DNA of 59,539 bases from Candidatus Woesearchaeota archaeon (GTDB lineage Archaea; Nanobdellota; Nanobdellia; Woesearchaeales; ARS49), in contig WJJS01000004.1 of the NCBI GenBank assembly GCA_014729505.1, positions 1 through 59,539 on the forward strand. Direction: 5' to 3'. This document shows positions 36,104 through 59,539 of the stretch, in pieces. The stretch's first letter is position 1; the number at the start of each line of letters is the position of its first letter. A program made the position numbers and the translations under genes. Under the pieces are notes generated by a model. It did not search any database and had not been told where the DNA came from. It saw only the letters and a program-made list of their open reading frames with translations.

Positions 36104-36241
36104 CAAAAGACTGGAAGAACAGAAATATATAAACCTTGTCGAAGGAAGCATCACTACAAAACTACAACACTCCTTCAACGAAATGTTTATAAGTTTGACA
36201 CTCTCAAAGAACGCAAAAGTATTAACTGACGAGTGAAGAAG

Positions 36242-37344
36242 ATGCAGACATATGAATCCGGCAAGCAGATAGGCGACTACCTATTGCTTTTACAATTAGG
36301 ACGTGGACGTACAAGCGAAGTGTGGACTGCACTGCGCGACCCATGTGATGAGCCTGTCGGACTCAAAATTCTCCTCGACAACGATGCCGCGAGGGCAGAA
36401 CGTGAAGTGTGCATACTGCGATCCATCGATGAGTTCTATCACTATCGCGACATCGACTATCGGGCAGGCGACGCCCATTTTGCGTTTCCTTTGCGTTTAG
36501 GAAGGGATGTTGGAACAGAATTGCGCGACAGAGGACTACTGGCGCCCACAAAAGCGCTGCGAATTATTGGTTGTGCAGCAGACTATCTTGCTCGAGCACA
36601 TGAACGGGGATATGTGCATGGAGATCTCAAGCCTTCCCACCTGATCTATGAGCCCGATTTAACAACAAGAGTCGTGGATTGGGGTGATGCTAGAGAAAAA
36701 AGAGAGCTGGATCATTCAGTCTCACTGTGATAACAAACGCTTGTAGGAACTCTGCCCTACTTAAGTCCTGAACAACGAGAAGGAGAACTTCCGACGGAAA
36801 AAACAGACGTCTGGCAACTTGGAGTGATTTTGCATGAGTGTCTGACAGGAAAAAGAGCAAAAGCACCGGACGAAGTCGGCATAGGCAACACGCGAAGAGT
36901 TGCCCCAGTCGCGCTGCGATTCATTGCACGTCGCATGTTACCCTCGGATCCTCGCCGAAGAATGACGATGGAGGGACTCTCACAAGCACTGCGGGTAAAA
37001 ATACTGCCAGATCAGCGAGAGTATACGAGAAAAAAATACGGCAGTGTTATGCTATTGCCTCTGGCGTTAGAGAAAAAACCGATGCCGTTCGCAATAAGCG
37101 CGAGCCGACGCAGAGTAACCAATCAGATGCGGCGATCACCACAAGCCGCCTTGTCGGCGGTCTGGCGGCAGGACTCCTAGCAGGATATCTTGGTTTTGCA
37201 CACACTGCAGAAAAAAGCACAGTCCTGCCTGCTGAACGTGGCATGGTTTCTCAGCGGGAGCGACGAACTCCGCTTGATGAGATATGGTTGCCGCCTCGCG
37301 TAGCGCGCGAAGAAGAAATCTGGAGAGACCATACTAGTGCCTAG
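36242..37344 (+). pseudogene. Membrane-anchored Ser/Thr protein kinase interrupted by tandem stops and a frameshift
   Basis: The first frame (GTG 36233 or ATG 36242) encodes a kinase N-lobe and catalytic loop: LGRGRTSEVW, LKILLD with the ATP Lys, HGDLKPSHLIY and VVDWG in place of DFG. It ends at TGA-TAA (36728-36733). The same frame then continues with QTLVGTLPYLSPEQ, TDVWQLGVILHECLTG and DPRRRMTMEGL, exactly the activation-loop end and C-lobe. Near 37073, at a run of six A (GAGAAAAAACCG), a -1 shift is needed to reach a membrane helix (LVGGLAAGLLAGYLGF) and a charged tail ending at 37344. Two lesions make a pseudogene likely; sequencing error or recoding are alternatives. Confidence 0.7.
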
Positions 37345-37397
37345 GCCGCTGCGCAGACGTTCCTGTTATCACTGCATAATAACACTTATTACAAAAC

Positions 37398-37409
37398 CTT
37401 TATATATTT
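37398..37409 (+). promoter_or_regulatory. TATA box of the 37429 gene
   Basis: CCTTTATATATT is centred about 26 bases before the ATG, whose first bases read ATGGGGGGAG (see the G6A motif finding). Confidence 0.6.
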
Positions 37410-37428
37410 CTGCGCCTAAGACCGCCTC

Positions 37429-38475
37429 ATGGGGGGAGAGCATACAATAACGGACAGAGTCCTGCGGGCAGCACACAGCTTACTTGAAACGCCGCCATCA
37501 CTTAGTGATCTTGCCAGTGCGCTAGAGACTGCAAGCGGATACCATCAAGAAGATGTACAGATTGTTCTTGATCGCGAAGAATGGATCGGCGATGATCAAT
37601 GGGCAAGAGAGGTCGTAGACGAGCTGCAACAAGAACGCGAAGCAGCTCTGGATCCTCTGCGGGGAATTCTCGACGGACTAGACTGCGTATATGCAACGCG
37701 GATCGGTGAAGTACGCGAACGCGCAGAACTGGCCCGATTAACACCGCTTGCACAACAACTCAGACCCTATAGAGAAGGGATAAATCTTCCCGTACTGTTC
37801 TATGCAAGCAAAGAACAAGGAGAAGACATAAGACACTACTGGGCACTTGTTCCAGTACCTCGACAAAAAACAACAACACTGCTTGAGCAAGAACTGAAGA
37901 AGTATTTCTGCGATGACTCCGCATCTTCAGTACTGGCAGGACAGGAAATACTGGCCTTTTCTTTAGGCGGTAGAGAAGGATCCTTTGAACAGGAATGCAA
38001 ACGCATACGACGGACGCTAGATGAGCAAGACAAACCGTGCTACGGACTTATCCGACCGCAATACCGGGGAAGCCTGGAAATAGAATTGCAGGGTCGGCCA
38101 CGAAGAGAAGACGCGAGGACGATACACACTGAAGAAGAGCGAGTCGCCGCTGCAATACTCTACAACGAGCGATTTGAAGAACTCAATGAACAACCGCCGC
38201 TACAACAACAGTTTGCCAACACCATACTGACTATTGCCTTTGACGGCAGAGAACCCAGTTCAGGAGTGATGAGGACAAGCGAACACTGGTGGGAAGAAGT
38301 AGAAAGAATCTCCGGACTGCGAGATCGATACACCACAGAACGATCATGGAAACAAGCAGTTCGATTTCAAGGCATACGCGTCCTTCGAGAATTAGGGATT
38401 CTAAGTGAAGGTCGACGCTATGAGGGCGGCGGATCGCACAGAGAATACGACGTGAACGTAAATGGACAAGAATGA
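37429..38475 (+). CDS. Unrecognised island protein with C-terminal winged-helix-like segment
   Basis: The product is 348 residues, starting MGGEHTITDRVLRAAHSLLE. The N-terminal ~110 residues are helical and acidic. A strand-helix-strand part follows (INLPVLFYASKEQG, YWALVPVPRQ, LLEQELKKYF, ILAFSLGG) that resembles segments of the 39273 and 48547 products. The C-terminus (SWKQAVRFQGIRVLRELGIL then GRRYEGGGSHREYDVN) reads like a winged helix. No enzymatic motif. The message is leaderless. The next gene overlaps by 14 bases, so they form a two-gene operon. Confidence 0.7.
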   Translation: MGGEHTITDRVLRAAHSLLETPPSLSDLASALETASGYHQEDVQIVLDREEWIGDDQWAREVVDELQQEREAALDPLRGILDGLDCVYATRIGEVRERAELARLTPLAQQLRPYREGINLPVLFYASKEQGEDIRHYWALVPVPRQKTTTLLEQELKKYFCDDSASSVLAGQEILAFSLGGREGSFEQECKRIRRTLDEQDKPCYGLIRPQYRGSLEIELQGRPRREDARTIHTEEERVAAAILYNERFEELNEQPPLQQQFANTILTIAFDGREPSSGVMRTSEHWWEEVERISGLRDRYTTERSWKQAVRFQGIRVLRELGILSEGRRYEGGGSHREYDVNVNGQE

Positions 38476-39292
38476 ATACCTTCGCATAGAACAGCGAGAA
38501 CTTGCGCGCAGAACACTGCTTGGACGAGACGTAAAAAGTCGCTTTGCCATAGAGCAACAAAAAGCAGAGGCTATTGGTCTTGGAGAAGAAATAGCGCAAC
38601 TCTATGGAATGTTTGGCGAAGGCAGTGCACGACTTGACGTGATTGGCCGTGCACTTCAGGTCGTCACCCGAGGACTCGTCGGCATAGCGCGATTACACGA
38701 AGGAAAGAGTCTTCTAGAACAGATGATTCCTGCAACAAAAGACGCTTTAGACCGTCGAGAACGACTTGCCGGACGAACGCTTGACACAAAAGCAGATGAA
38801 TTCTTCGCATCATTTTCTTACTGGTTACACTGCGATAAGATGTGGCTTGAAGAATCCACAGAACCCGTCGAAGAACGACCAACAAGAGCAATGCGCCGAT
38901 CACAACGACCGGGATATCAAGGACCTCGATATCCGCCAAGTTGGGAAGAAGATGAAGCGACAGGCATCTTTGCAGACACCGAAGGACCCTTGCTACAACT
39001 GGACGTTACGCGATTGCGAGACGCCACTGGTTTTTCAACTTCAAAAATTCGACAATACCTGAGCGAAAACCAGTCATCATTTGGACTAAACGGGCGACGG
39101 CAAGGAGCTCCCTACATCTTCAAAACCCGAGCCTACGGCGCACCACTAATTGACTTTTTCGTCTATATGGGTTTTCCACAAACACAAGACGGTTCTTATG
39201 ATCAAGAATGTGCTAGTGCACGAGACAAAGCGACAGAACTGTTACACGTGGCCCAGGATCGAGGATGGGTAGTCACGCCTGACGAAGATTGA
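38462..39292 (+). CDS. Unrecognised island protein with HTH-like C-terminal part
   Basis: The product is 276 residues: an Arg/Glu-rich helical N-terminal half, a proline-rich linker (about 145-165: GYQGPRYPPSWEEDE), and a C-terminal domain with LDVTRLRDATGFSTSKIRQYLSENQ, which looks like a helix-turn-helix. It overlaps the upstream gene by 14 bases and its 3' end overlaps the convergent 39273 gene by 20 bases. No function recognised. Confidence 0.68.
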   Translation: MDKNEYLRIEQRELARRTLLGRDVKSRFAIEQQKAEAIGLGEEIAQLYGMFGEGSARLDVIGRALQVVTRGLVGIARLHEGKSLLEQMIPATKDALDRRERLAGRTLDTKADEFFASFSYWLHCDKMWLEESTEPVEERPTRAMRRSQRPGYQGPRYPPSWEEDEATGIFADTEGPLLQLDVTRLRDATGFSTSKIRQYLSENQSSFGLNGRRQGAPYIFKTRAYGAPLIDFFVYMGFPQTQDGSYDQECASARDKATELLHVAQDRGWVVTPDED

Positions 39293-40898
39293 GATACGCC
39301 CGCACACTCTGTTTGGTAAGTACCGGAGAATCTTGAACAGTAATCATTGTACCGTCCTCTGTTGTGACGGCCTGAAGATTTCTTGCGCGATCAAGTCTCA
39401 TTTGTGTCGTCGGAAGCAACGATTGGAACGCAGAGGACTCAAGCACCAAAGGATCGCGAAGCGACACATACCAAAATCCCTGATCGGTCAAAAAGATATG
39501 TTCTCGACGGCGCTGATCTATAGCAGAACGTTCATAGACCCTCCAACGTTTCTTACGCACCTCATCCTCCTTCCACGTAGCATTAGTTAAGGAGAGCAAA
39601 CGAGCAACATCATCAATTGCAGGACCTGTAACACCCGCGCGTAGTTGCTCCAATGCTTGTTCTTGAGTCAAATATTCCTCGCCCAGACTGTCCATGAACG
39701 CCGCGGAGTACGGACTAACCACTTCAGCCTCCTCTTTTGTTCTGGGGGTATACGAGGGAAATTGACCGTTCTCATCTTGAACATGTTCTGCAAACAATGA
39801 AACAACCTTTTCATCAGCTGCTTCAAACCATAACGGAGCGATCTGAATATTTGCAAATGACAGATCTTCCTGTCGAGCTGCTTGATCGCGAATCCTGCTA
39901 TGCATACGTCGCAATTGCTCTTTCCAGTCTTCCTGCCACCACTCACAATCACTATTTCTGTTCGCAATATACGTAACGTTGAGAACCGGAATATCAAGAA
40001 TGCTTAAAGGAACCCGGCCCTTCTTCGTCTTGATATGTGATTTTCGCGCGTATTTTCGCAAACCCTGAAACGTAGCATCAAGTAATGATTGACTGATTTG
40101 TGGACCTCGACGATGCTCGTAATCCAGAGGTAACGGCAAAAGAACAGAACAGTGGGATCCGAATCTTGAGTATACAATCGGAATAACGCACGGTGTTTGT
40201 CTAAACTCTGCATGACCGTCGAGAACGTCATCACTTAATTCTGCCAGATCATGCATTCCCTCATATGATAATCGTCGCTTTACCCGAGTAAGATGTACCC
40301 AATCACGACGACGATAGCGCGCAAGCGAAATGGGTCTGCTGCGCCAGACCTCGGGATGAGTAAGCAATTCCTTATATTGCGACTGAAAATTACGAGATCT
40401 TGCTTCATCGCGAAAATTATACCAATTATGAGACGTTCGACCAAATTTGTCCGCAAGACCAAGAAGTTGGATCGATTCCTGTTTGTATCGCACCCATCTT
40501 TCAAAACCAATACGCTTTCTAAGAAGGGGCTCTTGACCGTCGAGCAATCGAAGAATTCCCTGTGCGGCAACAGCGCGGGCACTAAGCGATTCTTCAACAG
40601 CTCGCTGCTTTATCTCATCACATCTGCGATGAGCCTGGCGTACTGCTTCTTGACTTTTGCGAGCGAACTCTCTGTCAAGTATCTGTTCCTTTCTTTTGAG
40701 CTTTTTCTCGAGCGCATCACGTTGACGATGGGCATCGGCCTCAAAAGATTCGACGGCCTCCAAATGCTCGTCTTCAGCTTTTTGCTGCGCGTCTTCTATT
40801 CGTTTAGGGCGCTCCTTTTCAACGGCTTCAATTAGCGGCTGAGATTTTTCTGTCGCGTCCTTTGCCCGTTGCAGCGAGCGCAGTAGATCGTCACTCAT
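39273..40898 (-). CDS. Unrecognised island protein with N-terminal coiled coil
   Basis: The product is 541 residues. Residues 1 to about 120 are a highly charged coiled coil (Glu/Lys/Arg/Ala heptads). A mixed alpha/beta part follows, including CVIPIVYSRFG, HCSVLLPLPLD, a helix ending FQGLRKYA, and ILDIPVLNVTYIANR. This order of strands and helix is also seen in the 37429 and 48547 products. A C-terminal ~120 residues end LTKQSVRAYLNLRQA. A TATA-like AGTTTATAATG (minus strand, about 40919-40930) lies 25-30 bases upstream. It is transcribed divergently from the HTH/GHKL operon. No catalytic motif found. Confidence 0.68.
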   Translation of the reverse strand: MSDDLLRSLQRAKDATEKSQPLIEAVEKERPKRIEDAQQKAEDEHLEAVESFEADAHRQRDALEKKLKRKEQILDREFARKSQEAVRQAHRRCDEIKQRAVEESLSARAVAAQGILRLLDGQEPLLRKRIGFERWVRYKQESIQLLGLADKFGRTSHNWYNFRDEARSRNFQSQYKELLTHPEVWRSRPISLARYRRRDWVHLTRVKRRLSYEGMHDLAELSDDVLDGHAEFRQTPCVIPIVYSRFGSHCSVLLPLPLDYEHRRGPQISQSLLDATFQGLRKYARKSHIKTKKGRVPLSILDIPVLNVTYIANRNSDCEWWQEDWKEQLRRMHSRIRDQAARQEDLSFANIQIAPLWFEAADEKVVSLFAEHVQDENGQFPSYTPRTKEEAEVVSPYSAAFMDSLGEEYLTQEQALEQLRAGVTGPAIDDVARLLSLTNATWKEDEVRKKRWRVYERSAIDQRRREHIFLTDQGFWYVSLRDPLVLESSAFQSLLPTTQMRLDRARNLQAVTTEDGTMITVQDSPVLTKQSVRAYLNLRQA

Positions 40899-40974
40899 AG
40901 ACTTCTCATTGACAAAAACACATTATAAACTTTTCCTCAAATTAACTACTGTATAATAAGAACTATTTAGAAAG

Positions 40975-40984
40975 CTTTATATAT
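40975..40984 (+). promoter_or_regulatory. TATA box of the HTH/GHKL operon
   Basis: CTTTATATAT is centred about 26 bases before the ATG at 41006, which continues GTGGGGGGAAC. The AT-rich stretch between this and the divergent gene could host control of both. Confidence 0.6.
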
Positions 40985-41005
40985 CTCAATAGGTGAAAAG
41001 TAACT

Positions 41006-42427
41006 ATGGTGGGGGGAACAGAGACAAACGAACACAGAGCGCCACGACCACTAGTCATAGCGCCACACGCTTTTGGGGCAGAACTGGCAAAGCTACGCGG
41101 CAAACGACGATTAGATCGAGTATCGCAAAGAACAGAAATTGCCGTGGACACCTATGTAGCAATGGAATCTGGCGAGCGTAAGCCCACCAGTGAAGAATTA
41201 GAAGCGCTTATAGCAGCATACAGTCACTATGGTCATGAGGAACAAACATTAAACCATCTGCGAGAAATGCACGCATCACTCGACGACACTTCATATGCCA
41301 CTACTGAAAGTCAAAGAAAAGAAAGACATACACGGATCAAGCGCATCGTCGAAGCAATACGTTCGATTAACGATTACACCTGGGCGGATCTCGCAGAACC
41401 GCTACAGATCAACGGAAAAACAATCAACGATCGCACGGTACAAAAATTTCTACAGGCAGAAGACCCACAAGAAGTATCCTTAAAAAATCTGAAAACAGAA
41501 GATGTCGCGGTAGCATTAATGAATACCTACGGGTTTCGACCAACAGCAGAAGAAGAAAAAAGACTACTAACAGAACAAGCACAACTAGAACAAGGAAGAC
41601 GTGATGTCGCCTCAAGAATCGACAAAGCATTTCAAGATGATCCAAGTATTATCGAACGCATAGTACACGCAACTCATTGCTCTCGAAACACTGCACATGT
41701 ATGGCGCAATGGAGAACGCATACCAAACGCTAGTTCTTATCGCATCATAGATCGCGTATTATCAGAGCAAACAACAGAATCAACAGAAGAAACTGACGAG
41801 AAAGAACCATATGAACCAGAACATGATCAAACAGAAACGCCAGGATACGAACAAATAATTGCAGACGCTTTACAAGGAAAAATGAGTTGCGACCGTTTTC
41901 GAAGTGTGCTGCAGCTTGACGGCGTCAGTGGGCGGGATATGGAACGTACAGGTTGCTTTAAGAGACATGTCGTGGCAAAATACCGACGAGGAAGAGAAGA
42001 CCTTGATCCAGAAGATGCGCGAAAGGTAGGTATATACCTCTCTGCAAAAAATGAGACAACAACTCTGGCGTCCCGCATGCTAGACGCATTCGACGATCCG
42101 CCATTTAATGAACGAGGAACACTCGGCTCCCCGGATACTACTCCTCGAAGAGACTTTGAAGAGCACGCTGAGGATGACCGCTTACTTGAAGATACGAAAA
42201 AAATATATGACTCACTACATCCACTAGCAGACCATTTTCTCAGCCTCTGCAGCCGCTTAGGATATGACGGACTTTTACAAGTAAGAGCGTACGCAAAGGA
42301 ACAATTCGGATCACCAGCTATCATGAGAATTGTTGACGGACTTGACGCTGCACTGACAAAATCAGAACAAGGATGGAAAAACTACAGCGGCGTACTTGGA
42401 CGAGCACAACAACAGGAGGACGCATAA
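41006..42427 (+). CDS. Multi-HTH regulator (XRE-like N-terminus)
   Basis: The product is 473 residues. Residues about 23-75 read as an XRE/Cro helix-turn-helix (FGAELAKLRGKRRL, RTEIAVDTYVAMESGERKPTSEELEALIAAY). At least two further helix-turn-helix-like units follow (about 110-165 with WADLAEPLQINGKTINDRTVQKFL; about 215-255 with IVHATHCSRNTAHVWRNGERIPNASS), then a third near 285-350. The C-terminus is helical. The message is leaderless. Its stop overlaps the GHKL gene start (TAATG), so the two are translated together. It may sense or regulate the island; that is inference. Confidence 0.72.
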   Translation: MVGGTETNEHRAPRPLVIAPHAFGAELAKLRGKRRLDRVSQRTEIAVDTYVAMESGERKPTSEELEALIAAYSHYGHEEQTLNHLREMHASLDDTSYATTESQRKERHTRIKRIVEAIRSINDYTWADLAEPLQINGKTINDRTVQKFLQAEDPQEVSLKNLKTEDVAVALMNTYGFRPTAEEEKRLLTEQAQLEQGRRDVASRIDKAFQDDPSIIERIVHATHCSRNTAHVWRNGERIPNASSYRIIDRVLSEQTTESTEETDEKEPYEPEHDQTETPGYEQIIADALQGKMSCDRFRSVLQLDGVSGRDMERTGCFKRHVVAKYRRGREDLDPEDARKVGIYLSAKNETTTLASRMLDAFDDPPFNERGTLGSPDTTPRRDFEEHAEDDRLLEDTKKIYDSLHPLADHFLSLCSRLGYDGLLQVRAYAKEQFGSPAIMRIVDGLDAALTKSEQGWKNYSGVLGRAQQQEDA

Positions 42428-44196
42428 TGGGACGACGAAGATCAAAAAACAGAAAACAAAAAAGCATGCCACCACTCACTCCTGCCAGAGCAGAATCCCG
42501 AATAATAGAACCTCAAGATGGTTATTACCTCATCCAACCAGGAGGAACAGGTTTTCTCGATTCAATAGCGCATATGCATGCAACGCCTGCAGATGCATTA
42601 CGAGAATACGTGAGCAATTCCATGCGACACGGTCGCGCGCGACTTATACAACTCATAATCCATTATGGCAGACAAGTGAATATTGAAGACCACGTTCCGC
42701 TCCTGCCAGAAGGAGTGCTCACGCCGAGACTCACAGACGCAGACGGAACAGAAATACCTTTTTTTGACAACTTGAAAGGCCGCATGGACATCGTGATCAA
42801 AGACGACGGCATTGGCATACCATTTAGTGCAGAAACTGTTGAAGGACCCTACGGTATGGGATTGGTACAACTCGCCACTCAAGTGGCAAGCTGTCAACGA
42901 CAATTGCTCGAACACCAGCGCGACACGCCATTACAACGAGTTGCAGGTCGCGGAAACGGCATGGTAGGGTATTTGCGATTCGGCGCGTGGAGTCATGTCG
43001 TATCAAAAACAACCGATCAGGAATACTGGGGAGTCTGTGACATGGTGCGAGGAGCACGAGACTTTCACGTCTATCGATTAACAGATCCTGGAGATATTGC
43101 AAGACAAGAAAAAAAGATCGGAGGACGCGATCACGGTACAAGCATTTCAATCACGAATATCTGGGACGGGGATCGATTACGCGTCAGAGATGTCAGCGAA
43201 GTAGTAGAACGATACTTTCGACGAGCTATAATCGACAATCAAGTTCAAGTAGAAATCATAGGAAGACAAGGAAGACGAACAGTTGGTGAAGCCACACTTA
43301 CGCCGGAAACAGTAGCGTATGGTCGGGAAGGACAAACAGGAATGGAAGAACCCATTACCTTTGAAGCAAACGGTGTTCGAGAAACACTCGTTGCATGGTA
43401 CAGTGAAAGAGCGGAATCAGCAGACGATCTCACACTCTGTATGGAAGGATTTCATCCCTGTTTTCTAAGAGACATCAAAAGATTGCGAGGAACAATTTAT
43501 GCAAACCCTCACCTTTCAGGATACGTCACCTGTACAAGCCTGCCAATGAATGCAGGACGAACAGGGATCAGTCGGGAAAACCGTCGACGACTGGAAGCAT
43601 ACATGAACGCATTACTCAGTGAAAGAGTTATGGGTCGACTAGAAGCATGGCACCGCTCCGTACGACAACCTCGTTCCCGACGAGGAGTGCAGACTATTGT
43701 CCAGGATACTGGTACGAGCGTTGCTGCAAGAGCTGCAGACATTATGGAACCACAAGCAGAATCCGCATTCTCAAGAGCGATAGCAGACGCACACACTGAT
43801 GTATCGAGTGTTCCGAGTGGAATGAGTTGCGAAATCTATGTATCACAACTGGAAAAAGCACAAGAACGTTGCAGAACAATGATCTCAGGTCTGCGTCATG
43901 GACTGAGCTATGATGAAGGCAATGTAGATCTACCAGAAGCAAGCGCGGAATGGATGGAAGGACTTGACATGTGGCGTTTCACCATTAATCAAGATCATCC
44001 GCAACGACCGATGAGAAATGGCAGAGAAAATCGCGCATACAGTCTTGACCTCATGGCGTGGGACATCTCACACTTACTTAATGCAATGATAGACCGGGTA
44101 CAAGAACTAGTACCGCCCGGATCCAGCATAGAGAGAGGATTGCGACGCAATCTCACGTATCCCCTGGTCTATGAAATACTGCATCAAAACACGTAA
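42427..44196 (+). CDS. GHKL-fold ATPase (Hsp90/MutL/MORC-like)
   Basis: The product is 589 residues. After a basic N-terminus (MGRRRSKNRKQKS) it has the Bergerat ATP-binding motifs in order: N-box REYVSNSMRHG (Glu60/Asn64), G1 DDGIGI (126-131), G2 YGMGLVQLA (142-150) and a GTSISITN strand (237-244). Residues about 250-420 read as an S5-like transducer region, the rest is helical. There is no histidine-kinase dimerisation domain, TOPRIM or MutL endonuclease motif. GHKL ATPases of MutL/MORC type have been linked to restriction-modification loci. Here it is coupled to the HTH protein. Confidence 0.82.
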   Translation: MGRRRSKNRKQKSMPPLTPARAESRIIEPQDGYYLIQPGGTGFLDSIAHMHATPADALREYVSNSMRHGRARLIQLIIHYGRQVNIEDHVPLLPEGVLTPRLTDADGTEIPFFDNLKGRMDIVIKDDGIGIPFSAETVEGPYGMGLVQLATQVASCQRQLLEHQRDTPLQRVAGRGNGMVGYLRFGAWSHVVSKTTDQEYWGVCDMVRGARDFHVYRLTDPGDIARQEKKIGGRDHGTSISITNIWDGDRLRVRDVSEVVERYFRRAIIDNQVQVEIIGRQGRRTVGEATLTPETVAYGREGQTGMEEPITFEANGVRETLVAWYSERAESADDLTLCMEGFHPCFLRDIKRLRGTIYANPHLSGYVTCTSLPMNAGRTGISRENRRRLEAYMNALLSERVMGRLEAWHRSVRQPRSRRGVQTIVQDTGTSVAARAADIMEPQAESAFSRAIADAHTDVSSVPSGMSCEIYVSQLEKAQERCRTMISGLRHGLSYDEGNVDLPEASAEWMEGLDMWRFTINQDHPQRPMRNGRENRAYSLDLMAWDISHLLNAMIDRVQELVPPGSSIERGLRRNLTYPLVYEILHQNT

Positions 44197-44319
44197 TAGC
44201 CAACACTCACTCCAATTGTTGATTTTCTCGGTAATGAATAGTAGTCACTTGTTATTTTGTAACGCGTCATTGTCTAACACTATTGCTCGCGTTCTATTAC
44301 CTGACAATGCCGCCTAACT

Positions 44320-45096
44320 TTATGATTTGTGATGCGGTGTTTTAGGCTGCAAAGCCCGCAAGCGGGACTTGATACTCGTATTCAAAGCCGTACCAGTATG
44401 TATCTTTATTACCTGCTCACGCAATTGCTCGGGAGTCAAGCGAATCATACTTTGTGCAATATCGCCATCCAATAATTGAGAAAGAACGCGATATGTCCCA
44501 GTACCCTTTCTTCCCAAACATCTTCTTTTAACATGATATTTTTCGATGAATGTCTCGAGAGGAATATGTTTTCCTACGCGACCATACGCCTGACGGACAA
44601 GCATTCGAGAAGCTTCCGCAACAAGAACTCTTCCCGAACGCAGTTCGCCGATATCGTCACTAAGATCTGCAGGTAATAAGCGCAGAAACTCCTCTTCTGG
44701 CCTGGCAGGATCAACAGGACTTATGCCTGGAAGATCGCTGCGCAAACGATCATGCAACAGATAAAAAGAACCCTGCTGATTTCCATTTACAAAAGTACAA
44801 CTATCAAGAGAATAATTACGAAGCCATCCAACAAGATCATAATATTCAGAACGCAAACGATTACTCCCTTTAGGATAATGATCAACATACGATCTGCCAG
44901 CGCGATCAGACCAATAACCGAGAAGTAACGCATAAAAAGCGCCCTGCACTTCAGGATGCTCTCCAAGCACTGCATCATGGGGTAGGCGAATATCGCGATT
45001 GCCGAAATGACGAAATCTCTCACGAGTAAGACGAGCAAGCGCAGTTCTTTTGGAAGTATCTAAGCAATCAATAATCGACTGCACTGAAGAACTCAT
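44320..45096 (-). CDS. Unrecognised island protein, third gene of the helicase operon
   Basis: The product is 258 residues starting MSSSVQSIIDCLDTSKRTALARL. GTGAG lies 6 bases upstream; a Met at 45111, overlapping the SNF2 gene stop, is an alternative. It is Arg/Leu-rich and mostly helical, with a basic C-terminus ending PKTPHHKS. The segment TGTYRVLSQLLDGDIAQSMIRLTPEQLREQV suggests a helix-turn-helix. No enzymatic motif is visible. It follows the SNF2-methyltransferase gene by 7 bases and is presumably co-transcribed. Confidence 0.65.
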   Translation of the reverse strand: MSSSVQSIIDCLDTSKRTALARLTRERFRHFGNRDIRLPHDAVLGEHPEVQGAFYALLLGYWSDRAGRSYVDHYPKGSNRLRSEYYDLVGWLRNYSLDSCTFVNGNQQGSFYLLHDRLRSDLPGISPVDPARPEEEFLRLLPADLSDDIGELRSGRVLVAEASRMLVRQAYGRVGKHIPLETFIEKYHVKRRCLGRKGTGTYRVLSQLLDGDIAQSMIRLTPEQLREQVIKIHTGTALNTSIKSRLRALQPKTPHHKS

Positions 45097-45103
45097 AATA
45101 TAC

Positions 45104-48100
45104 TCACGCATTATCCTTGTAACAACGGACAAGAAGAGCATCAAGATCCCCTCTTGCAGGTGTATACCCTCCATATGTTTTCTTCACACTAAGACTGCCG
45201 CGTCCTCCCCGACTGCGCCCCGCACTGCGCTGCCTACCCAACGCAACTTTTATTTCCTCCTCGGTAAACAATGCATACTCTTCTGGTGCGCCAACATAAA
45301 CGCCTTCCTCCCAATTACAATCCCTCACCTTACGCAATGCAATCAGCTTGAAACCTGACCTGCTCGCCCGAGATATCTTTGCAGTCTTTACATCACCGCC
45401 CAAATGCTTAGTACAGACGGTAGGCGTATACGCGCCGCTAATAGGTAGAGTTTCAAAACCATATCGAGCAGGATTACCTGCATTTTGCAGCACCTTATTG
45501 AAACTATCCGTATCAACGCCCCACTGTACGGGCGCAAGCAATATACCGCCAACTTGCATGACCCGATTGGTTTCCTTAAGAAGATCCTCGATTTGGCGCA
45601 GCGTTTTCCCTTCGTTTTGTCGACGCTGTGCCTGATACTGCCAGACATACGCTTGCACAAAAAGATCAATACCTCGTTTAGAAGTGGCAGTAGGTAAGCC
45701 GGTTTTTTGCAATTCCGTTCTCAAATACTTGTTGTCCTTTAGTGTTCGATATGCGTCACCCTCTCTGACAAGGGTATCGCAAATCTCGTGTCCCATATCA
45801 AGGAATTGCTGATCCATATCTATACATAAAAAACTCTGTTTGAACGCTCTTGAAGCATAAGCGGCACCGCAACCTCCGTCAGCACGATACTCAAAGTCCT
45901 TGCCTCGCAATTCCTCCAATCGTCGAGTAATGCCTGCAAGAAACGTGTTTGTCCAATTAGACTGGGAAAACTCCCAATTATGATCATAGCACTGCATAAC
46001 ACGACGCCAGGCCCCTTTACCCTGAGCTTTACGCAAACCTTTGTAATCAATACCGTTATGTGTTTTGAAAAAATTAGTAGCAACGCGGTGCGGAGAGTCG
46101 AAGATAAGCAATCGCAACAATCCATTGTCCACATCAAGACTGCTCTGCCAATCACCATCTTCAATATTTAAAAAACTCTGATCAACAAGCTGATCGAGAT
46201 TTGCGGTACTCATAGGATCAAAGATAGCATCAAACAATCGGACCTGTCCATCGATAGCATCAAATCCTGCAGCATCAATAGGAACCAATGCTTCACGAAG
46301 TTGTTCGTCATCTCGAGGCATGCGAACATTGAATTCCTGCTCAATAGTTTCCAAGAAAGGTTTGACTGCATCGACCAACGTAGGTGCATCGCTCTTAACG
46401 CGATATACGTTAACAGGACCTGGCTTTATGGGCTTACCATTATCAACAGTACCCATCCGGTCAGCACGCCCAACCAATTGCTTATACGCTCCGCCATGAA
46501 TAGGAGTATCCATCATAATCATGCTGATAGGTTTTCCTGTATTAGAAGTAATCTTAATACCTACCTCGAGCGCTTGTTGTGTTGAGACAATAGCCTGCAC
46601 TTTATCGGTGCGAAAGTGATGCTTTATCTCCTCTTCACGCTTTTCAGGCGAGTCTTGACCATTGAGGCGAATGTAGGAGATACCTAACTTGTCAAGAAGT
46701 GTGCAAATCTGGCCAACGTGGTCGACATAACGAGCATTAATAATCAATTGATCGCGACGAGAACCGTCCTCGTTAGTTGCGCGTTCGCGAATGAGCTGTT
46801 CAATACCTCTGTTAGATCCCTGTCGAGCTCCACGCATTTTACCCCGAAACAAAGTCCTGTACATTCCATGAAGACAAGACAGTCCTCTCTTAACGCTGAC
46901 ACCTCGATCATCATCTCGCTTAGCAAGACAAGCGCCGAGATGGTTATACAACTGAGTCCACTGCAAGAAATACTCCTGTTCTATATCTTCTGGCATCGTA
47001 ATATTAACATCGTGAAAGTGCAAATCCGGAAGAGGGTACACCTTGGCAAGATCTTCACGTTTAAAGACGAGAGCAGAACGTCGAATAAGTTCGCGAACAT
47101 CCTCAAGACTGCGATTAAAATCATACCCGCGGGGATCGCCCATATGACCTTCCCTGTCGAGAAAATAAAGAATTGTTCTCGCATCATTAACGCTGTGCTC
47201 AAGAGGCGTAGCACTGGCAGCCATACGTTTAGCACCACCATGACCCGTTAGGACTTCAAGGAGACGCTGCGTTCGCTGAGACCATTTGCGAAAACGCTGC
47301 ACTTCATCCGTCACGACCAGATCAAAAGGAGGAGCATCACGAAGAGCGCGAGCCCAACGATTATCACAAGGATCTACAGGTTCTTTGCTTTCCTCAGCTA
47401 TCTCGTCCAACTTTTTCTTTCCATTACCATCGGTTACAGAAAGCTTACCGTCACTAATAACTGCAATGCCGCCGTCACGCAAGCCTCCCTGTTCACGGGA
47501 TTTGTCAAGCAATGTTGTATCGCCAAATTTTTTGAGCGGAACAACATGTACTTTAGGAGTATCAGCCCAGGAAGTATACTTGCCATTAAACTCGTCATCT
47601 GTAAACACTGAAGTGGCAGGTTGGGCAGGAGTAACGACGAGCATTCTCGCATCACGACCTTCAGTACTACGCAAGGCTTTAGACAATTCCTCATACGCCC
47701 AGTACTCGCTGCCCGTTTTACCGCTGCCAGTCTTATCAACAATCAGTAAATCATCACGTTCTGCCAATCTACGGCCACGAAGAAACTGATGAAACAAAGG
47801 AAACTTACTGCCACGAGATGTCGTTTTAGCCTGCTTATCCCACAGTCTTGCATCAGCAGTAATCTTATCAAGACACTCTTGGACAAGACCGTCGCGATCC
47901 AGAGGAAAACGTGCACGCAAACGATCAATACGTTGCAACGCATCATCCACATCCCTTGCCGTTTGCACTTGATGAGTAAAGCCAAGCATGATACGATTGC
48001 TAAGTTCACGACGAAACTGTTTGTCACCAAATACATTAGAACGCGCTTTGAGCGCAACGGCAAGCAAGGCGTTTGTTGTGGGATCAAGCGCGCCATCGTA

Positions 48101-48550
48101 ATTCTCAATACCATTTCCTGAAGGAACGGAAATAACGCCAAGACCAAGACGACGGAAACCCTCGCGAGCAATAGCAGCAATGCGGTCAACATAGGCAGGA
48201 GCGTATGCGCTAACCTCTGGCGAGATCATAGGAATGCCTGCATCACCCGTTTGGATAAGCTGAGCCATACTACCAGTTGCCTGAATATTCCCGTCGCTAT
48301 CATAGTACACTCTGCCAACACCTTCAATATTAAGCAGTTCTTCAACATCCTCCTGCGTGATCAATTCACCAAACTGACCTTTAATCTGATGATAAAGAGG
48401 TGTAAAAGAATCATCTTCACCTCGAAGCTCAGACATTTTCTGGCGCAACGCGTCGACAAAGCCCATGCCATCCTTTTTTGCACGTTCCTTGAGTTCGCGA
48501 TACAGATTAGGATCCTGTTCAAAAATGAACTCTTCTAATTCTTTACTCAC
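45104..48550 (-). CDS. SNF2-like helicase fused to a C-terminal methyltransferase-like domain
   Basis: The product is 1148 residues. After ~240 helical residues it has Walker A DKTGSGKT (272-279), VVTPAQP, Walker B/motif II TDEVQ (414-418) and motif III ASATPL (445-450). The second RecA domain has NARYVDHVGQI, VSTQQALEVGIK and motif VI QLVGRADRMG (691-700), the SF2/SNF2 pattern. Residues about 850-1090 look like a class I methyltransferase: motif I ADGGCGAAYAS (890-900), CIDMD (909-913), DLFVQAYVWQYQ, and ETNRVMQVGGILL (993-1005). NPPY/DPPY is absent, so this is not a typical DNA N6-A or N4-C methylase. The tail is Arg/Gly-rich. The start overlaps the upstream gene stop (ATGA). Confidence 0.82.
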   Translation of the reverse strand: MSKELEEFIFEQDPNLYRELKERAKKDGMGFVDALRQKMSELRGEDDSFTPLYHQIKGQFGELITQEDVEELLNIEGVGRVYYDSDGNIQATGSMAQLIQTGDAGIPMISPEVSAYAPAYVDRIAAIAREGFRRLGLGVISVPSGNGIENYDGALDPTTNALLAVALKARSNVFGDKQFRRELSNRIMLGFTHQVQTARDVDDALQRIDRLRARFPLDRDGLVQECLDKITADARLWDKQAKTTSRGSKFPLFHQFLRGRRLAERDDLLIVDKTGSGKTGSEYWAYEELSKALRSTEGRDARMLVVTPAQPATSVFTDDEFNGKYTSWADTPKVHVVPLKKFGDTTLLDKSREQGGLRDGGIAVISDGKLSVTDGNGKKKLDEIAEESKEPVDPCDNRWARALRDAPPFDLVVTDEVQRFRKWSQRTQRLLEVLTGHGGAKRMAASATPLEHSVNDARTILYFLDREGHMGDPRGYDFNRSLEDVRELIRRSALVFKREDLAKVYPLPDLHFHDVNITMPEDIEQEYFLQWTQLYNHLGACLAKRDDDRGVSVKRGLSCLHGMYRTLFRGKMRGARQGSNRGIEQLIRERATNEDGSRRDQLIINARYVDHVGQICTLLDKLGISYIRLNGQDSPEKREEEIKHHFRTDKVQAIVSTQQALEVGIKITSNTGKPISMIMMDTPIHGGAYKQLVGRADRMGTVDNGKPIKPGPVNVYRVKSDAPTLVDAVKPFLETIEQEFNVRMPRDDEQLREALVPIDAAGFDAIDGQVRLFDAIFDPMSTANLDQLVDQSFLNIEDGDWQSSLDVDNGLLRLLIFDSPHRVATNFFKTHNGIDYKGLRKAQGKGAWRRVMQCYDHNWEFSQSNWTNTFLAGITRRLEELRGKDFEYRADGGCGAAYASRAFKQSFLCIDMDQQFLDMGHEICDTLVREGDAYRTLKDNKYLRTELQKTGLPTATSKRGIDLFVQAYVWQYQAQRRQNEGKTLRQIEDLLKETNRVMQVGGILLAPVQWGVDTDSFNKVLQNAGNPARYGFETLPISGAYTPTVCTKHLGGDVKTAKISRASRSGFKLIALRKVRDCNWEEGVYVGAPEEYALFTEEEIKVALGRQRSAGRSRGGRGSLSVKKTYGGYTPARGDLDALLVRCYKDNA

Positions 48551-49740
48551 TTAAGAACCTCAATCGTATACACTGCGGGCGCAGTACCATTACTGACTCT
48601 CTCAAAACGATAGATGTCTCCTGGTTGCACTCCTCCATGCGCAGCAAGACGATCACATTCCCGAGCAGTCCAGCGATCATCCGATGGTTTACCGATTCCT
48701 ATTGAGATCTTTCCGCCGCGCAAACGAGTAGGCCATTGCACGCCACTACGATCGCGAAATTCAAATGGATGTTGTCCAAAGAATTGCCGATCTCCAGTAC
48801 GAACATTAATACACCCATAATCGATCAATGTAGGCAGTACAGGAAACTCGAGTGACGGATGAGGAGTACTCACTTGTCGAGGTTTATGCATCTGAATGTA
48901 GAAATCACGCTGATTTTCCTTGTCCGGTAAGCGCAGTATCCACATGCGATCGCCCACTGCGAGAGGTGAAGCTCCCTGCTGTGCAAAACGACCGTTTTCC
49001 CGTCGTACAAGACTAGTTACTCCTTCAGATATTTTGTAGGACGCAACGCGGGCATTCCATTGATTGCCTTGATAATCAGTGAGACCGAAGTCTTCATTTT
49101 CAGGAAGAAATGCGTCGTTGGCAAAATGTGCGCTCAGTACATTAATAGCACCCTGGTGGACTGCTGCATGACGAACAGGCAACTCTCTTGCATACTCCTC
49201 CAGATCCTTTCTGTACACTGGAATACCAGTAAGAGAAGCAGAACCCATGAGTTCAACGCGAGCACCGTTTAATCGCGGTTCGCTCCATAGAGTTGACTGC
49301 AGATCATGCATTTTTTCAAGATCCTTCAATGGAGTGAAAATAGACAGAAAACCAGCCAGTTCGCGATCTGTAATATCCGGACAGTAAGCGCGCTCCACAG
49401 CATCCCTTGTCTGGGCATAGACGCGTTCAGGTAAAGATCCTGACACTGCATCGCCTGATCGAATAGGAAGAACAACGTCAAGTCCTCGCTCTTCAGGAAC
49501 AAAAATGGCATCAACGCGCACATCGCCCGCTCTTGCAATGGATTGCGCAACTGATTCTGCCCGATGTCTTAACCTCAGTAATCGTTTAGTACTCTGAGTA
49601 GAGCCAATTTCTCGAGCTAACGTTTGCGCTTGTTCGTAAAGAGCAGCGCGCTCATGTAATTCACGCATGCCGCACAGCAGGTGATCAAATGCTACTGGCG
49701 GTAATTCTTGTGCTAATCTTCTTCTTATAGGTTCAGTCAT
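48547..49740 (-). CDS. Island protein with tandem B3/EcoRII-N-like repeats
   Basis: The product is 397 residues. An Arg/Glu-rich helical N-terminal third is followed by a strand-helix part (DAIFVPEERGLDVVLPI). Two C-terminal repeats (about residues 215-295 and 315-395) share D-x-x-G-x-Q-W-x-x-R, a central Ile-x-x-Gly and a Leu/Val-x-x-GD turn followed by strands. This layout resembles plant B3 and EcoRII N-terminal DNA-binding barrels, so I suggest DNA binding. The start at 49740 follows GGGGGAG by 4 bases; a TTG 30 bases earlier is less likely. It is first in the operon with the SNF2 gene. Confidence 0.68.
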   Translation of the reverse strand: MTEPIRRRLAQELPPVAFDHLLCGMRELHERAALYEQAQTLAREIGSTQSTKRLLRLRHRAESVAQSIARAGDVRVDAIFVPEERGLDVVLPIRSGDAVSGSLPERVYAQTRDAVERAYCPDITDRELAGFLSIFTPLKDLEKMHDLQSTLWSEPRLNGARVELMGSASLTGIPVYRKDLEEYARELPVRHAAVHQGAINVLSAHFANDAFLPENEDFGLTDYQGNQWNARVASYKISEGVTSLVRRENGRFAQQGASPLAVGDRMWILRLPDKENQRDFYIQMHKPRQVSTPHPSLEFPVLPTLIDYGCINVRTGDRQFFGQHPFEFRDRSGVQWPTRLRGGKISIGIGKPSDDRWTARECDRLAAHGGVQPGDIYRFERVSNGTAPAVYTIEVLK

Positions 49741-49852: not shown

Positions 49853-50776
49853 TTATTTGCGGCCTTTCTTGCCCTTTTGAACTTTCTTGTCCAACTTGAG
49901 CTTCTCGATCAGTTCCTTGTAACGATTACGAATCGTCACTTCCGTGACGCCTGCAACGTCGGCAACTTCCCGCTGTGTACGCTTCTCGCCATGCATGAGT
50001 GCGGCTACGTAGAGTGCAGCAGCAGCGATGCCTGTAGGACCGCGACCGCTTGTGAGTTCGGCATGCTGGGCGATCTCAAGGATTTCGACCGCACGGCTTT
50101 GCGTTTCAGCAGTAAGACGAAGGCTGGACGCGAAGCGAGCGATATAATCTGCAGGATTGCTTGGCAAGATGCTGATACCGAGTTCTCGCGTGACAAAACG
50201 GTATGTCCGTCCAATTTCTTTCTTTTCGATGCCGCTAGCTTCTGAGAGTTCGTCAAGCGTACGAGGAACCTCGTGGCGTCGACAAGCAGCGTATAAGGCG
50301 CCAGCAACTACTGATTCCATGGACCGTCCACGAACAAGACCGCGCTGGACAGCCTGCGTATAAATCATGGCTGCTTCTTCTTCAACGCTCTTAGGGAGCT
50401 TGAGGTAGGACGCCACACGCTTAAGCTCTGCCAAAGCGAGCTTGAGGTTACGCTCAATAGCCGTACTAATACGGTACTGCCACTTTCGAAGGCGGAAAAA
50501 CTTGTTACGATCCTTAGAACTGAGCTGGAACAAGTCGGCCTTTTGGCCTACTTCGGTACCCAGTCCCTGGTCGTACTGCGTATACGTCATGGGTGCTCCG
50601 GTACGTCGGCGGCCCTGGCTAGAACCGTCAGCCTCGAATTCTCGCCATTCCTGGCCAAATTCAACCATCTTGTCTTCAACGACAAGACCGCAATCTTTAC
50701 AAATAACTTCGCCCTTATTGCGATTAACAAAGAGATTAATGGATGCACAATCAGGACATTTTTTTACGTAACGCAT
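49853..50776 (-). CDS. tfb: Transcription initiation factor B
   Basis: The product is 307 residues, the archaeal TFIIB homologue that bridges TBP-DNA and RNA polymerase. It has an N-terminal zinc ribbon with Cys7, Cys10, Cys26 and Cys29 (CPDC/CKDCG), the B-reader region (EWREFEADGSSQGRRRTGAP), and two cyclin folds (about 105-195 and 205-300). The second contains a helix-turn-helix that reads the BRE (TQREVADVAGVTEVTIRNRYKEL). The C-terminus is basic. Its message has a ~22-base leader with a G6A run (50786-50791), the same motif found at the starts of island genes. Confidence 0.97.
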   Translation of the reverse strand: MRYVKKCPDCASINLFVNRNKGEVICKDCGLVVEDKMVEFGQEWREFEADGSSQGRRRTGAPMTYTQYDQGLGTEVGQKADLFQLSSKDRNKFFRLRKWQYRISTAIERNLKLALAELKRVASYLKLPKSVEEEAAMIYTQAVQRGLVRGRSMESVVAGALYAACRRHEVPRTLDELSEASGIEKKEIGRTYRFVTRELGISILPSNPADYIARFASSLRLTAETQSRAVEILEIAQHAELTSGRGPTGIAAAALYVAALMHGEKRTQREVADVAGVTEVTIRNRYKELIEKLKLDKKVQKGKKGRK

Positions 50777-50983: not shown

Positions 50984-51424
50984 ATGACTAGACGATTCAC
51001 AGGAACACAAGGACGACATCAGCGCAGACGAAAAATCTGGGCAGATGAGCTACGCAGTCCGAGAGGCGCTCATCTACGCGATCGCTGGGTTGGAGAACTC
51101 GATGCAGTGCCTGCAGAACTACCAGAAGCAGTAGGTGCTCTATACACTGCACTTGATGTGCCCCTGTATGGAACCGAAGTCCGGCAACTCGTTCGCGCCG
51201 TGCGAATGGGACAAGCACCGCGAGAAACCCTTGTGCTTCAAGCCTTTGGACTTGAACATGGAAGACGCATGCTCGAAAAGGTCATGCCACGTGATCTTGC
51301 AGAAGCAGTATCTCTGTACGTTGGACCTCGAACGCTTCGACAAGAACTTGTCGATCCCGTCACGCAGCGACAACGAAAAACACTTGCCTACGAGACTGAA
51401 GATACTTACCGAAGAGCAGCGTAA
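50984..51424 (+). CDS. Unrecognised small basic protein
   Basis: The product is 146 residues: an Arg-rich N-terminus (MTRRFTGTQGRHQRRRKIW), then short helices (PEAVGALYTALD, EVRQLVRAVRMGQAP, HGRRMLEKVMPRDLAEAVSLYVG) and an Arg-rich end. The amino-acid style (Arg, Glu, few Lys) matches the island proteins rather than the housekeeping genes. GGAGGAATT precedes the ATG and a strong terminator follows, so it is an independent, probably well-expressed unit. No function recognised. Confidence 0.7.
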   Translation: MTRRFTGTQGRHQRRRKIWADELRSPRGAHLRDRWVGELDAVPAELPEAVGALYTALDVPLYGTEVRQLVRAVRMGQAPRETLVLQAFGLEHGRRMLEKVMPRDLAEAVSLYVGPRTLRQELVDPVTQRQRKTLAYETEDTYRRAA

Positions 51425-51658: not shown

Positions 51659-51742
51659 GCCAGCGTGGCACAATCTGGTACTGCGCGGGCCTGGAAAGCC
51701 CGTTTCCTCACGGATATCCCGGTTCAAATCCGGGCGCTGGCG
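51659..51742 (+). tRNA. tRNA-Ser(GGA)
   Basis: The acceptor stem GCCAGCG (51659-51665) pairs with CGCTGGC (51735-51741), and discriminator G73 is at 51742. The anticodon stem CGGGC/GCCCG encloses loop CTGGAAA with anticodon GGA (51693-51695). A long variable arm can pair TCC with GGA. The T arm is CCCGG-TTCAAAT-CCGGG. The long variable arm and G73 are serine identity elements. CCA is not encoded. There is no intron. Confidence 0.93.
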
Positions 51743-51772
51743 TTGTCGAGTGTTTTGGCGCTCTTTTTTTGT
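51743..51772 (+). terminator. T-run terminator after tRNA-Ser
   Basis: Twenty bases after the tRNA end lies CTCTTTTTTTG (T-run 51764-51770), a typical archaeal termination signal. Confidence 0.55.
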
Positions 51773-51778
51773 TGTTGT

Positions 51779-51866
51779 GATTTGAACCGGGGCCAGTCAA
51801 GCTTTGCTTGACGTTGTCCTGGTTTCAAATCCGGGCGCTGGCGTTTCTAAAGATTCGAACCGGGAT
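51779..51866. repeat. tRNA 3'-fragment copies and inverted T-arm repeats
   Basis: A 22-base copy of the tRNA-Ser 3' end (51723-51744) recurs at 51824-51845. An inverted T-arm-like copy (GATTTGAACCGG, 51779-51790) faces it and can pair with 51820-51831. Between them sits a perfect hairpin GTCAAGC-TTT-GCTTGAC (51796-51812). A second inverted T-arm-like sequence (GATTCGAACCGGGAT) lies at 51852-51866. The rest of the stretch up to 52009 shows no gene or structure that I recognise. Confidence 0.6.
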
Positions 51867-59320: not shown

Positions 59321-59411
59321 GAAGTCACCAAGGCAGAATGAACTATATATGTTTTGCGTCCCATAAAATATATATACCGCAATAGGTTTCACTAGATAAA
59401 GAAAAGAGGCC

Positions 59412-59539
59412 ATGTCACTATTTCGCGCATATGATGTTCGCGGCATATATCCAAGCGAACTGAACGAGGAGAATGCTCGGCGCATTGGATACGCATACGC
59501 TAAATACCTTCGCGCAAAAAAAATCATTCTAGGAAGAGA
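59412..59539 (+). CDS. Phosphoglucomutase/phosphomannomutase (N-terminal fragment, runs off window)
   Basis: The visible 42 residues, MSLFRAYDVRGIYPSELNEE and following, carry the FRAYDVRGIYP N-terminus of alpha-D-phosphohexomutases, which interconvert hexose-1- and 6-phosphates. It is divergent from the cyclase gene; TATA-like AAATATATAT lies in the 91-base gap. The rest lies beyond the window. Confidence 0.85.
   Translation, partial: MSLFRAYDVRGIYPSELNEENARRIGYAYAKYLRAKKIILGR

What the first reader, a model, noticed from the sequence alone, without database searches (positions are those of the whole stretch)
36242..49740. Candidate undescribed island: GHKL ATPase, SNF2-methyltransferase fusion, multi-HTH protein and unknown partners
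Seen: about 13.5 kb of Arg/Glu-rich proteins unlike the neighbouring housekeeping genes. They include a GHKL ATPase coupled to a multi-HTH protein, and an operon of a putative DNA-binding protein, a 1148-residue SNF2-methyltransferase fusion and a small protein. There is also a divergent coiled-coil protein, a two-gene operon and a kinase. Known: SNF2 helicases with methylases (as in DISARM) and MutL/MORC-like GHKL ATPases occur in restriction-modification-type defence loci. Inference: this is a nucleic-acid-processing defence or element-control system. I cannot match its gene set to a named system, and there is no nuclease, integrase or transposase.
Basis: partly seen in the sequence, partly recalled or inferred. 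Interest (0 to 1): 0.75.

Follow-up and report, generated by a model that had tools for sequence, protein, structure and literature searches.

The report
MORC-like ATPase plus SNF2-methyltransferase archaeal cluster
A tiny archaeon carries a cluster of fast-evolving DNA-handling genes (an ATPase clamp, a DNA motor fused to a methyl-transfer enzyme, and likely DNA-binding helpers) whose core is repeated in a distantly related archaeon, so it looks like a real but untested anti-invader or gene-silencing system rather than a chance assortment.

Summary
The window, from a 1.05-Mb DPANN (Woesearchaeales-type) genome, has a GHKL ATPase gene translationally coupled to a helix-turn-helix gene, and an operon of a 407-aa protein, a 1148-aa SNF2-methyltransferase (D) and a small protein (E). 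The kinase gene is broken. Single-sequence searches find no close relatives, but profile searches show D is a family spread patchily through the class. In most loci D sits with E and a degenerate methylpurine-DNA-glycosylase-like protein. The window's D belongs to a well-supported subclade (100/100) that lacks the glycosylase gene. One member, G437, from another family outside the window's order, has in a single operon the window's GHKL (E 8e-9), D's N-terminal domain as a separate gene (E 9e-13), D (E 2e-59) and an E homologue. That supports a linked system of at least four parts; W348, W276, W541 and W407 have no detectable homologues. The HTH-GHKL pair also occurs without adjacent D in four genomes, so the system is modular. 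The closest described kind is MORC/paraMORC GHKL plus SNF2 restriction-like operons (Iyer 2008). This differs in having no recognisable nuclease, a methyltransferase not of DNA-methylase type, and extreme divergence. Function is inferred, not shown.

The parts
45104..48550 (-). D: SNF2-family SF2 helicase/translocase fused to a C-terminal class-I methyltransferase domain, plus an N-terminal domain (residues 1-205) that is a separate gene in G437
   Evidence: invariant motifs GSGKT, DE, SAT, QxxGRxxRxG and a D-x-G-C-G SAM motif
44320..45174 (-). E: small protein; likely true start at about 45096 (MSSSVQ). Member of the E family of D-linked repeat proteins
   Evidence: E profile built without window sequences hits it at full-length E 2.6e-7; hhalign P 49%, E 1.7e-4
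48547..49740 (-). 407-aa ORF (from 49770; ATG at 49740) upstream of and overlapping D (GTGA). Unknown; N-terminal helices; two possible B3-like 'GxxW...GD' repeats seen by eye only
   Evidence: no Pfam/PADLOC/NCBIfam support; single-sequence model uninformative, pLDDT 39.7
42373..44196 (+). GHKL ATPase (MORC/paraMORC-like); probable start ATG at 42427, overlapping the stop of the HTH gene
   Evidence: BLAST with G437 GHKL 8e-9 over 311 aa, whole-length family of six, pairwise 2e-6 with the GHKL of a C5-methylase locus
41006..42427 (+). HTH protein (473 aa), translationally coupled partner of the GHKL ATPase
   Evidence: HTH_31 3e-5, below cut-off; an HTH gene precedes GHKL in all six family loci, but W473 itself does not match the partner profile significantly
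39273..40898 (-). 541-aa protein with N-terminal coiled coil; membership in the system inferred from position and composition only
   Evidence: no homologues found; Arg-rich
37429..38475 (+). 348-aa protein of unknown function, first gene of a coupled pair; membership inferred only
   Evidence: no homologues
38462..39292 (+). 276-aa protein of unknown function, second gene of the pair; membership inferred only
   Evidence: no homologues
36233..37344 (+). broken Ser/Thr-kinase-like gene: kinase N-lobe and catalytic loop, two in-frame stops at about 36728-36733, C-terminal lobe in the same frame, tail in another frame

Best explanation
The locus is a highly diverged, modular DNA-handling system of the MORC/SNF2 (restriction-like) kind, probably acting against or controlling foreign or mobile DNA. 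Shown by sequence: an ATP-dependent GHKL protein with an HTH partner gene, an SNF2 translocase fused to a class-I methyltransferase, and an E-family protein form a set whose core recurs in one operon in a distant archaeon. Inferred mechanism: the HTH protein, and perhaps E and the 407-aa protein, choose DNA. The GHKL ATPase closes on DNA as a clamp, as MutL and MORC proteins do. The SNF2 motor translocates on or remodels DNA, and the fused methyltransferase puts a mark (on DNA, RNA or a bound protein) that separates self from non-self or stabilises the silenced state. Because no nuclease is recognisable, the likelier outcome is non-degradative silencing or trapping of DNA, unless one of the unknown proteins is a nuclease.
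For: G437:C15 has, in one same-strand run, a 345-aa protein, HTH (309 aa), GHKL (545 aa; W607 E 8e-9), a 202-aa protein equal to D's N-terminal domain (9e-13), D (857 aa; 2e-59) and an E homologue (E). The domain that is fused in the window and separate in G437 supports a functional link. The window's D and G437's D lie in a five-member clade with 100/100 support. In the 327-genome phylum sample the GHKL family occurs in 6 genomes and the D subclade in 5, with 3 shared. Leaving the window out, 2 of 5 against 4 of 326 gives p about 1e-3 (my hypergeometric estimate). The D tree disagrees with host kinship: same-family G018 and G019 carry the other D type. Distribution is patchy: full-length D in about a dozen of 353 genomes of the order. 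Iyer et al. report MORC GHKL genes with SNF2 helicases and DNA methylases in restriction-type operons (PMC2292703).
Against: No nuclease, toxin or other effector is recognised. The methyltransferase matches generic families (Methyltransf_11; weakly Rrp8-like Methyltransf_8, E 0.034), not DNA methylases. The GHKL-HTH pair is found without adjacent D in four genomes, and most D loci lack GHKL. Linkage of GHKL and D rests on two genomes. Apart from the broken kinase, PADLOC gives no meaningful match to the island proteins. No phage-challenge or expression data exist.
Confidence: 0.5

Rival explanations
1. Two independent modules lie side by side in a plastic region: a D-E operon (a DPANN-wide SNF2-methyltransferase system) and a separate HTH-GHKL cassette, with no joint function.
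For: HTH-GHKL occurs without adjacent D in G442:C13, G015, G398 and G444; most D loci have A-B-D-E-C and no GHKL.
Against: In G437 both modules, plus the domain fused to D in the window, are in one operon; co-occurrence of the D subclade and GHKL exceeds chance (about 1e-3).
Confidence: 0.3
2. The set is a chromatin or nucleoid remodelling and repair system of the host rather than a defence system, for example a translocase with a nucleic-acid methyltransferase and base-flipping readers.
For: Most D loci carry an AAG-fold (methylpurine-glycosylase-like) neighbour, and two lie beside the SAM synthetase gene (L048, L051). The island is Arg-rich but its GC3 is host-like, so it is not obviously recent.
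Against: Patchy distribution, D phylogeny that does not follow the hosts, extreme divergence, two D types in one genome (G485), and a window clade without the AAG-like gene.
Confidence: 0.2
3. The island is cargo or the remnant of an integrated mobile element (plasmid or virus) and the proteins serve that element.
For: ORFan-rich, atypical amino-acid composition; a 22-nt copy of the 3' end of tRNA-Ser lies 101 nt downstream of it.
Against: No integrase, replication or capsid gene was recognised; the SNF2-methyltransferase had no match in phage or plasmid records and only helicase-domain matches in viral contigs. The repeat does not flank the island, and TFB lies between the island and the tRNA.
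Confidence: 0.12

Closest known systems
Prokaryotic MORC/paraMORC GHKL operons with SWI2/SNF2 helicases (Iyer, Abhiman and Aravind 2008, PMC2292703)
   Same: GHKL ATPase gene beside an SNF2-family SF2 helicase, a methyltransferase activity and putative DNA-binding proteins; patchy distribution. W607 is distantly related to the GHKL of an archaeal C5-methylase locus.
   Different: No recognisable HNH, EcoRII or Vsr nuclease; the methyltransferase is fused to the helicase and is not of DNA-methylase type; an HTH gene is coupled to GHKL; D and E belong to families without Pfam, PADLOC or NCBIfam names of their own.
DPANN A-B-D-E-C operons found here (SNF2-methyltransferase with an AAG-like gene; e.g. 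G300, G019, G386, G368, G420)
   Same: Homologous D and E; same D-E gene order.
   Different: The window clade lacks the AAG-like gene C; no A or B homologue is detectable in the window; GHKL-HTH is present instead.
DISARM, ARMADA, BREX
   Same: An SNF2/RapA-type helicase and a methyltransferase in one locus.
   Different: No YprA/DrmA, DrmB, PglZ, BrxL or PglX-type N6-methylase; no PADLOC match to their proteins; the window's methyltransferase is class-I generic.

Membership tests
MORC/paraMORC restriction-type operons | GHKL ATPase domain with intact N, G1 and G2 motifs | tested here: met
   motifs visible; family alignment of six; G437 E 8e-9
MORC/paraMORC restriction-type operons | S5 domain C-terminal to GHKL | tested here: inconclusive
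   homology with other GHKL proteins extends well beyond the ATPase domain, but no domain-level match or usable structure
MORC/paraMORC restriction-type operons | SFII helicase gene in the neighbourhood | tested here: met
   D at 45104-48550; in G437 downstream of GHKL in the same operon
MORC/paraMORC restriction-type operons | DNA (C5 or N6) methylase | tested here: not met
   the methyltransferase domain matches only Methyltransf_11/Methyltransf_8 weakly (relatives)
MORC/paraMORC restriction-type operons | restriction or other nuclease gene | tested here: not met
   no nuclease family in Pfam, PADLOC or NCBIfam for any island protein; a very divergent one cannot be excluded
DISARM | DrmA (YprA-type helicase), DrmB, DrmC | tested here: not met
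   no PADLOC hit
A-B-D-E-C system of this report | D: SNF2-methyltransferase homologue | tested here: met
A-B-D-E-C system of this report | E protein downstream of D | tested here: met
   full-length E 2.6e-7
A-B-D-E-C system of this report | AAG-like protein C next to D | tested here: not met
   no such gene in the island; the genome's single PF02245 match is a canonical AAG on another contig
A-B-D-E-C system of this report | coiled-coil protein A with its conserved domain, and protein B | tested here: not met
   profiles find neither in the window

The most novel reading that the evidence does not exclude
It would act without a nuclease, by marking and silencing DNA.
Probability: 0.3. Interest if true: 0.82.

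Novelty: new variant of a known kind. Interest (0 to 1): 0.62.

Why it matters
Few defence or silencing systems have been described for DPANN archaea, which have tiny genomes. A nuclease-free GHKL plus SNF2 plus methyltransferase locus would be a prokaryotic parallel of eukaryotic MORC-dependent silencing and would make the proposed origin of MORC proteins from restriction-type loci testable in a second setting. The SNF2-methyltransferase operons with a degenerate methylpurine-glycosylase-like partner give a concrete, searchable gene family that no library used here names.

Tried and rejected
Single-sequence searches of the SNF2-methyltransferase in GTDB contigs, IMG/VR, phages, plasmids and PDB gave nothing useful, nor did the GHKL in IMG/VR or PDB. 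The idea that W541, W348 and W407 carry the C-terminal domain of protein A was tested by iterated HMMs and is not supported. W407 as a homologue of G437's 405-aa protein: shuffle z 2.7, not significant. W473 against the GHKL partner profile: not significant. B3-like domains in W407: by eye only, no Pfam match, structure model useless. Only window proteins and loci from the search for related loci or the DNA search may be handed to structure prediction, so G437 relatives could not be used as alignment rows. A single AAG in the genome is canonical and not in the island. Viral-contig relatives match only the helicase. DISARM and BREX: no component matches.

Full report
What is in the sequence. 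The window is contig 19 of an unnamed 1.05-Mb genome of 34 contigs, 100% complete and 0.75% contaminated by the tool's estimate. Best hits and neighbours place it in Woesearchaeales-type DPANN archaea (related records named Candidatus Woesearchaeota). The island 37.4-49.8 kb lies between a subtilase-like gene and a TFB gene. It contains two coupled small genes (348 and 276 aa), a divergent 541-aa protein, a coupled pair HTH (473 aa) and GHKL (607 aa), and an operon 407 aa - SNF2-methyltransferase 1148 aa (D) - 284 aa (E). W473 and W607 overlap at TGATG if W607 starts at 42427, and W407 and D overlap at GTGA, both readable in the coordinates. The kinase-like gene at 36.2-37.3 kb is broken by two consecutive in-frame stops in the kinase domain and a frame change before its tail. 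The island proteins are Arg-rich, with R/(R+K) 0.76 against 0.49, while GC3 is close to that of the neighbours. This points to protein-level selection or old residence rather than very recent arrival.

D is a family. One sequence finds only faint hits, but an order-wide search found distant members. A profile from five D proteins found about a dozen full-length members in 353 genomes of the order, and a larger profile found more in other orders of the class. Relatives match SNF2-rel_dom, Helicase_C and Methyltransf_11 clearly. The alignment keeps Walker A, DE, SAT and QxxGRxxRxG, plus the SAM motif and a conserved tryptophan (W859) about 30 residues before it, in proteins that are 15-25% identical.

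Two kinds of D locus. Most loci have the order A-B-D-E-C or a permutation (G300, G019, G386/L068, G368, G420 and G485:C47; G117 has A-B-C-D-E). C is a methylpurine-DNA-glycosylase-like protein: four of six tested pass the Pfam PF02245 cut-off, and three more divergent ones have no Pfam hit. The catalytic Glu of VETEAY is replaced in most, so most are probably readers rather than enzymes. A C gene lies beside or near D in 16 of 24 loci examined; two loci were cut by contig ends. The window's D, with those of G437, G442, G286 and G485:C29, forms one clade with 100/100 support, and all five lack C. G485 carries both kinds. D of the window's own family members G018 and G019 belongs to the other kind, so D does not follow host descent.

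The GHKL link. In G437:C15 one strand encodes, in order, 345 aa, 309 aa (HTH-like), GHKL 545 aa, 202 aa, D 857 aa, 288 aa and 405 aa. BLAST ties GHKL to W607 (E 8e-9, 22% over 311 aa), the 202-aa protein to residues 3-204 of the window's D (9e-13) and D to D (2e-59, 25% over 900 aa). The 288-aa protein carries the repeat unit of family E (dom E 1e-4). W284 matches an E profile built without it at 2.6e-7. The N-terminal domain is thus fused to D in the window and separate in G437. A GHKL profile found the family in six of 327 genomes, plus one restriction-type relative. In all six an HTH-type gene precedes and abuts GHKL. In G015, G398, G444 and G442:C13 no D lies nearby, so HTH-GHKL is a separable module. 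G442 has a D of the right clade on another contig.

What this means. GHKL, D, D's N-domain and E are linked by sequence evidence in two genomes from different families of the class, one of them outside the window's order. W473 is the HTH partner by position only. W407, W541, W348 and W276 have no detectable homologues, so their membership is open. The kinase is not a working part.

Mechanism. Iyer, Abhiman and Aravind (PMC2292703) showed that prokaryotic MORC GHKL genes lie with SFII helicases, one group of them SWI2/SNF2, with methylases and nucleases and sometimes a VP1/RAV (B3) DNA-binding protein, and proposed ATP-driven DNA looping. The window's GHKL is a distant relative (pairwise 2e-6 with an archaeal C5-methylase-linked GHKL). 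I infer DNA choice by the HTH and other helper proteins, ATP-driven clamping by GHKL, translocation by SNF2, and a methyl mark by the fused domain. The lack of any nuclease makes trapping or silencing the more likely outcome, with a hidden nuclease in an unknown protein as the main alternative. None of these steps has been shown.

Standing. It resembles MORC/SNF2 restriction-type operons but fails two of their features as tested (DNA methylase, nuclease), so I call it a variant and not a member. It is not DISARM or BREX. No description of a SNF2 + methyltransferase + DNA glycosylase set in DPANN was found in the open-access library; subscription papers are not covered.

Noticed in passing
36233-37344: Ser/Thr-kinase-like gene with two consecutive in-frame stops (TGA TAA) in the activation segment and an A7 run where the frame changes to a tail with a likely membrane helix; closest profiles PD-T4-6 and MAD6.
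   Followed up: partly
51723-51845: The last 22 nt of tRNA-Ser(GGA) are repeated exactly 101 nt downstream, as in an attachment-site remnant; nothing recognisable lies between.
   Followed up: no
50984-51424: 146-aa ORF beyond TFB with 15.8% Arg and no family match; may belong with the island proteins.
   Followed up: partly
15338-17302, 55723-57231, 57698-59527: Other Arg-rich long ORFs (654, 502, 609 aa) elsewhere in the window, not annotated here.
   Followed up: no
L068 and L098 (12.9-14.1 kb in L098): A canonical AAG gene with VETEAY lies next to the degenerate AAG-like C gene downstream of the D operon.
   Followed up: partly
L048 8003-9220; L051 8593-9765: S-adenosylmethionine synthetase genes directly beside D-type loci in two genomes.
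   Followed up: no
L103 2490-6548; L106 9517-15724; L107 9642-11770: Arrays of adjacent short genes made of repeated units (some HTH-like) beside D; they look like rapidly varying DNA- or protein-recognition modules.
   Followed up: no
L119 1821-8443; L056 173-2928: GHKL gene next to a C5 DNA methylase, the classical restriction-type arrangement, in two archaea of the order; in L119 a helicase and a DNA methylase of type III look follow.
   Followed up: partly
L008 2609-5629: Three tandem paralogues (329, 321, 359 aa) follow D in G286; no known family.
   Followed up: no
window 49853-50776; L009 11083-11569: TFB gene close to the D locus in both the window and G117, on different sides; perhaps coincidence, perhaps a favoured site.
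   Followed up: no
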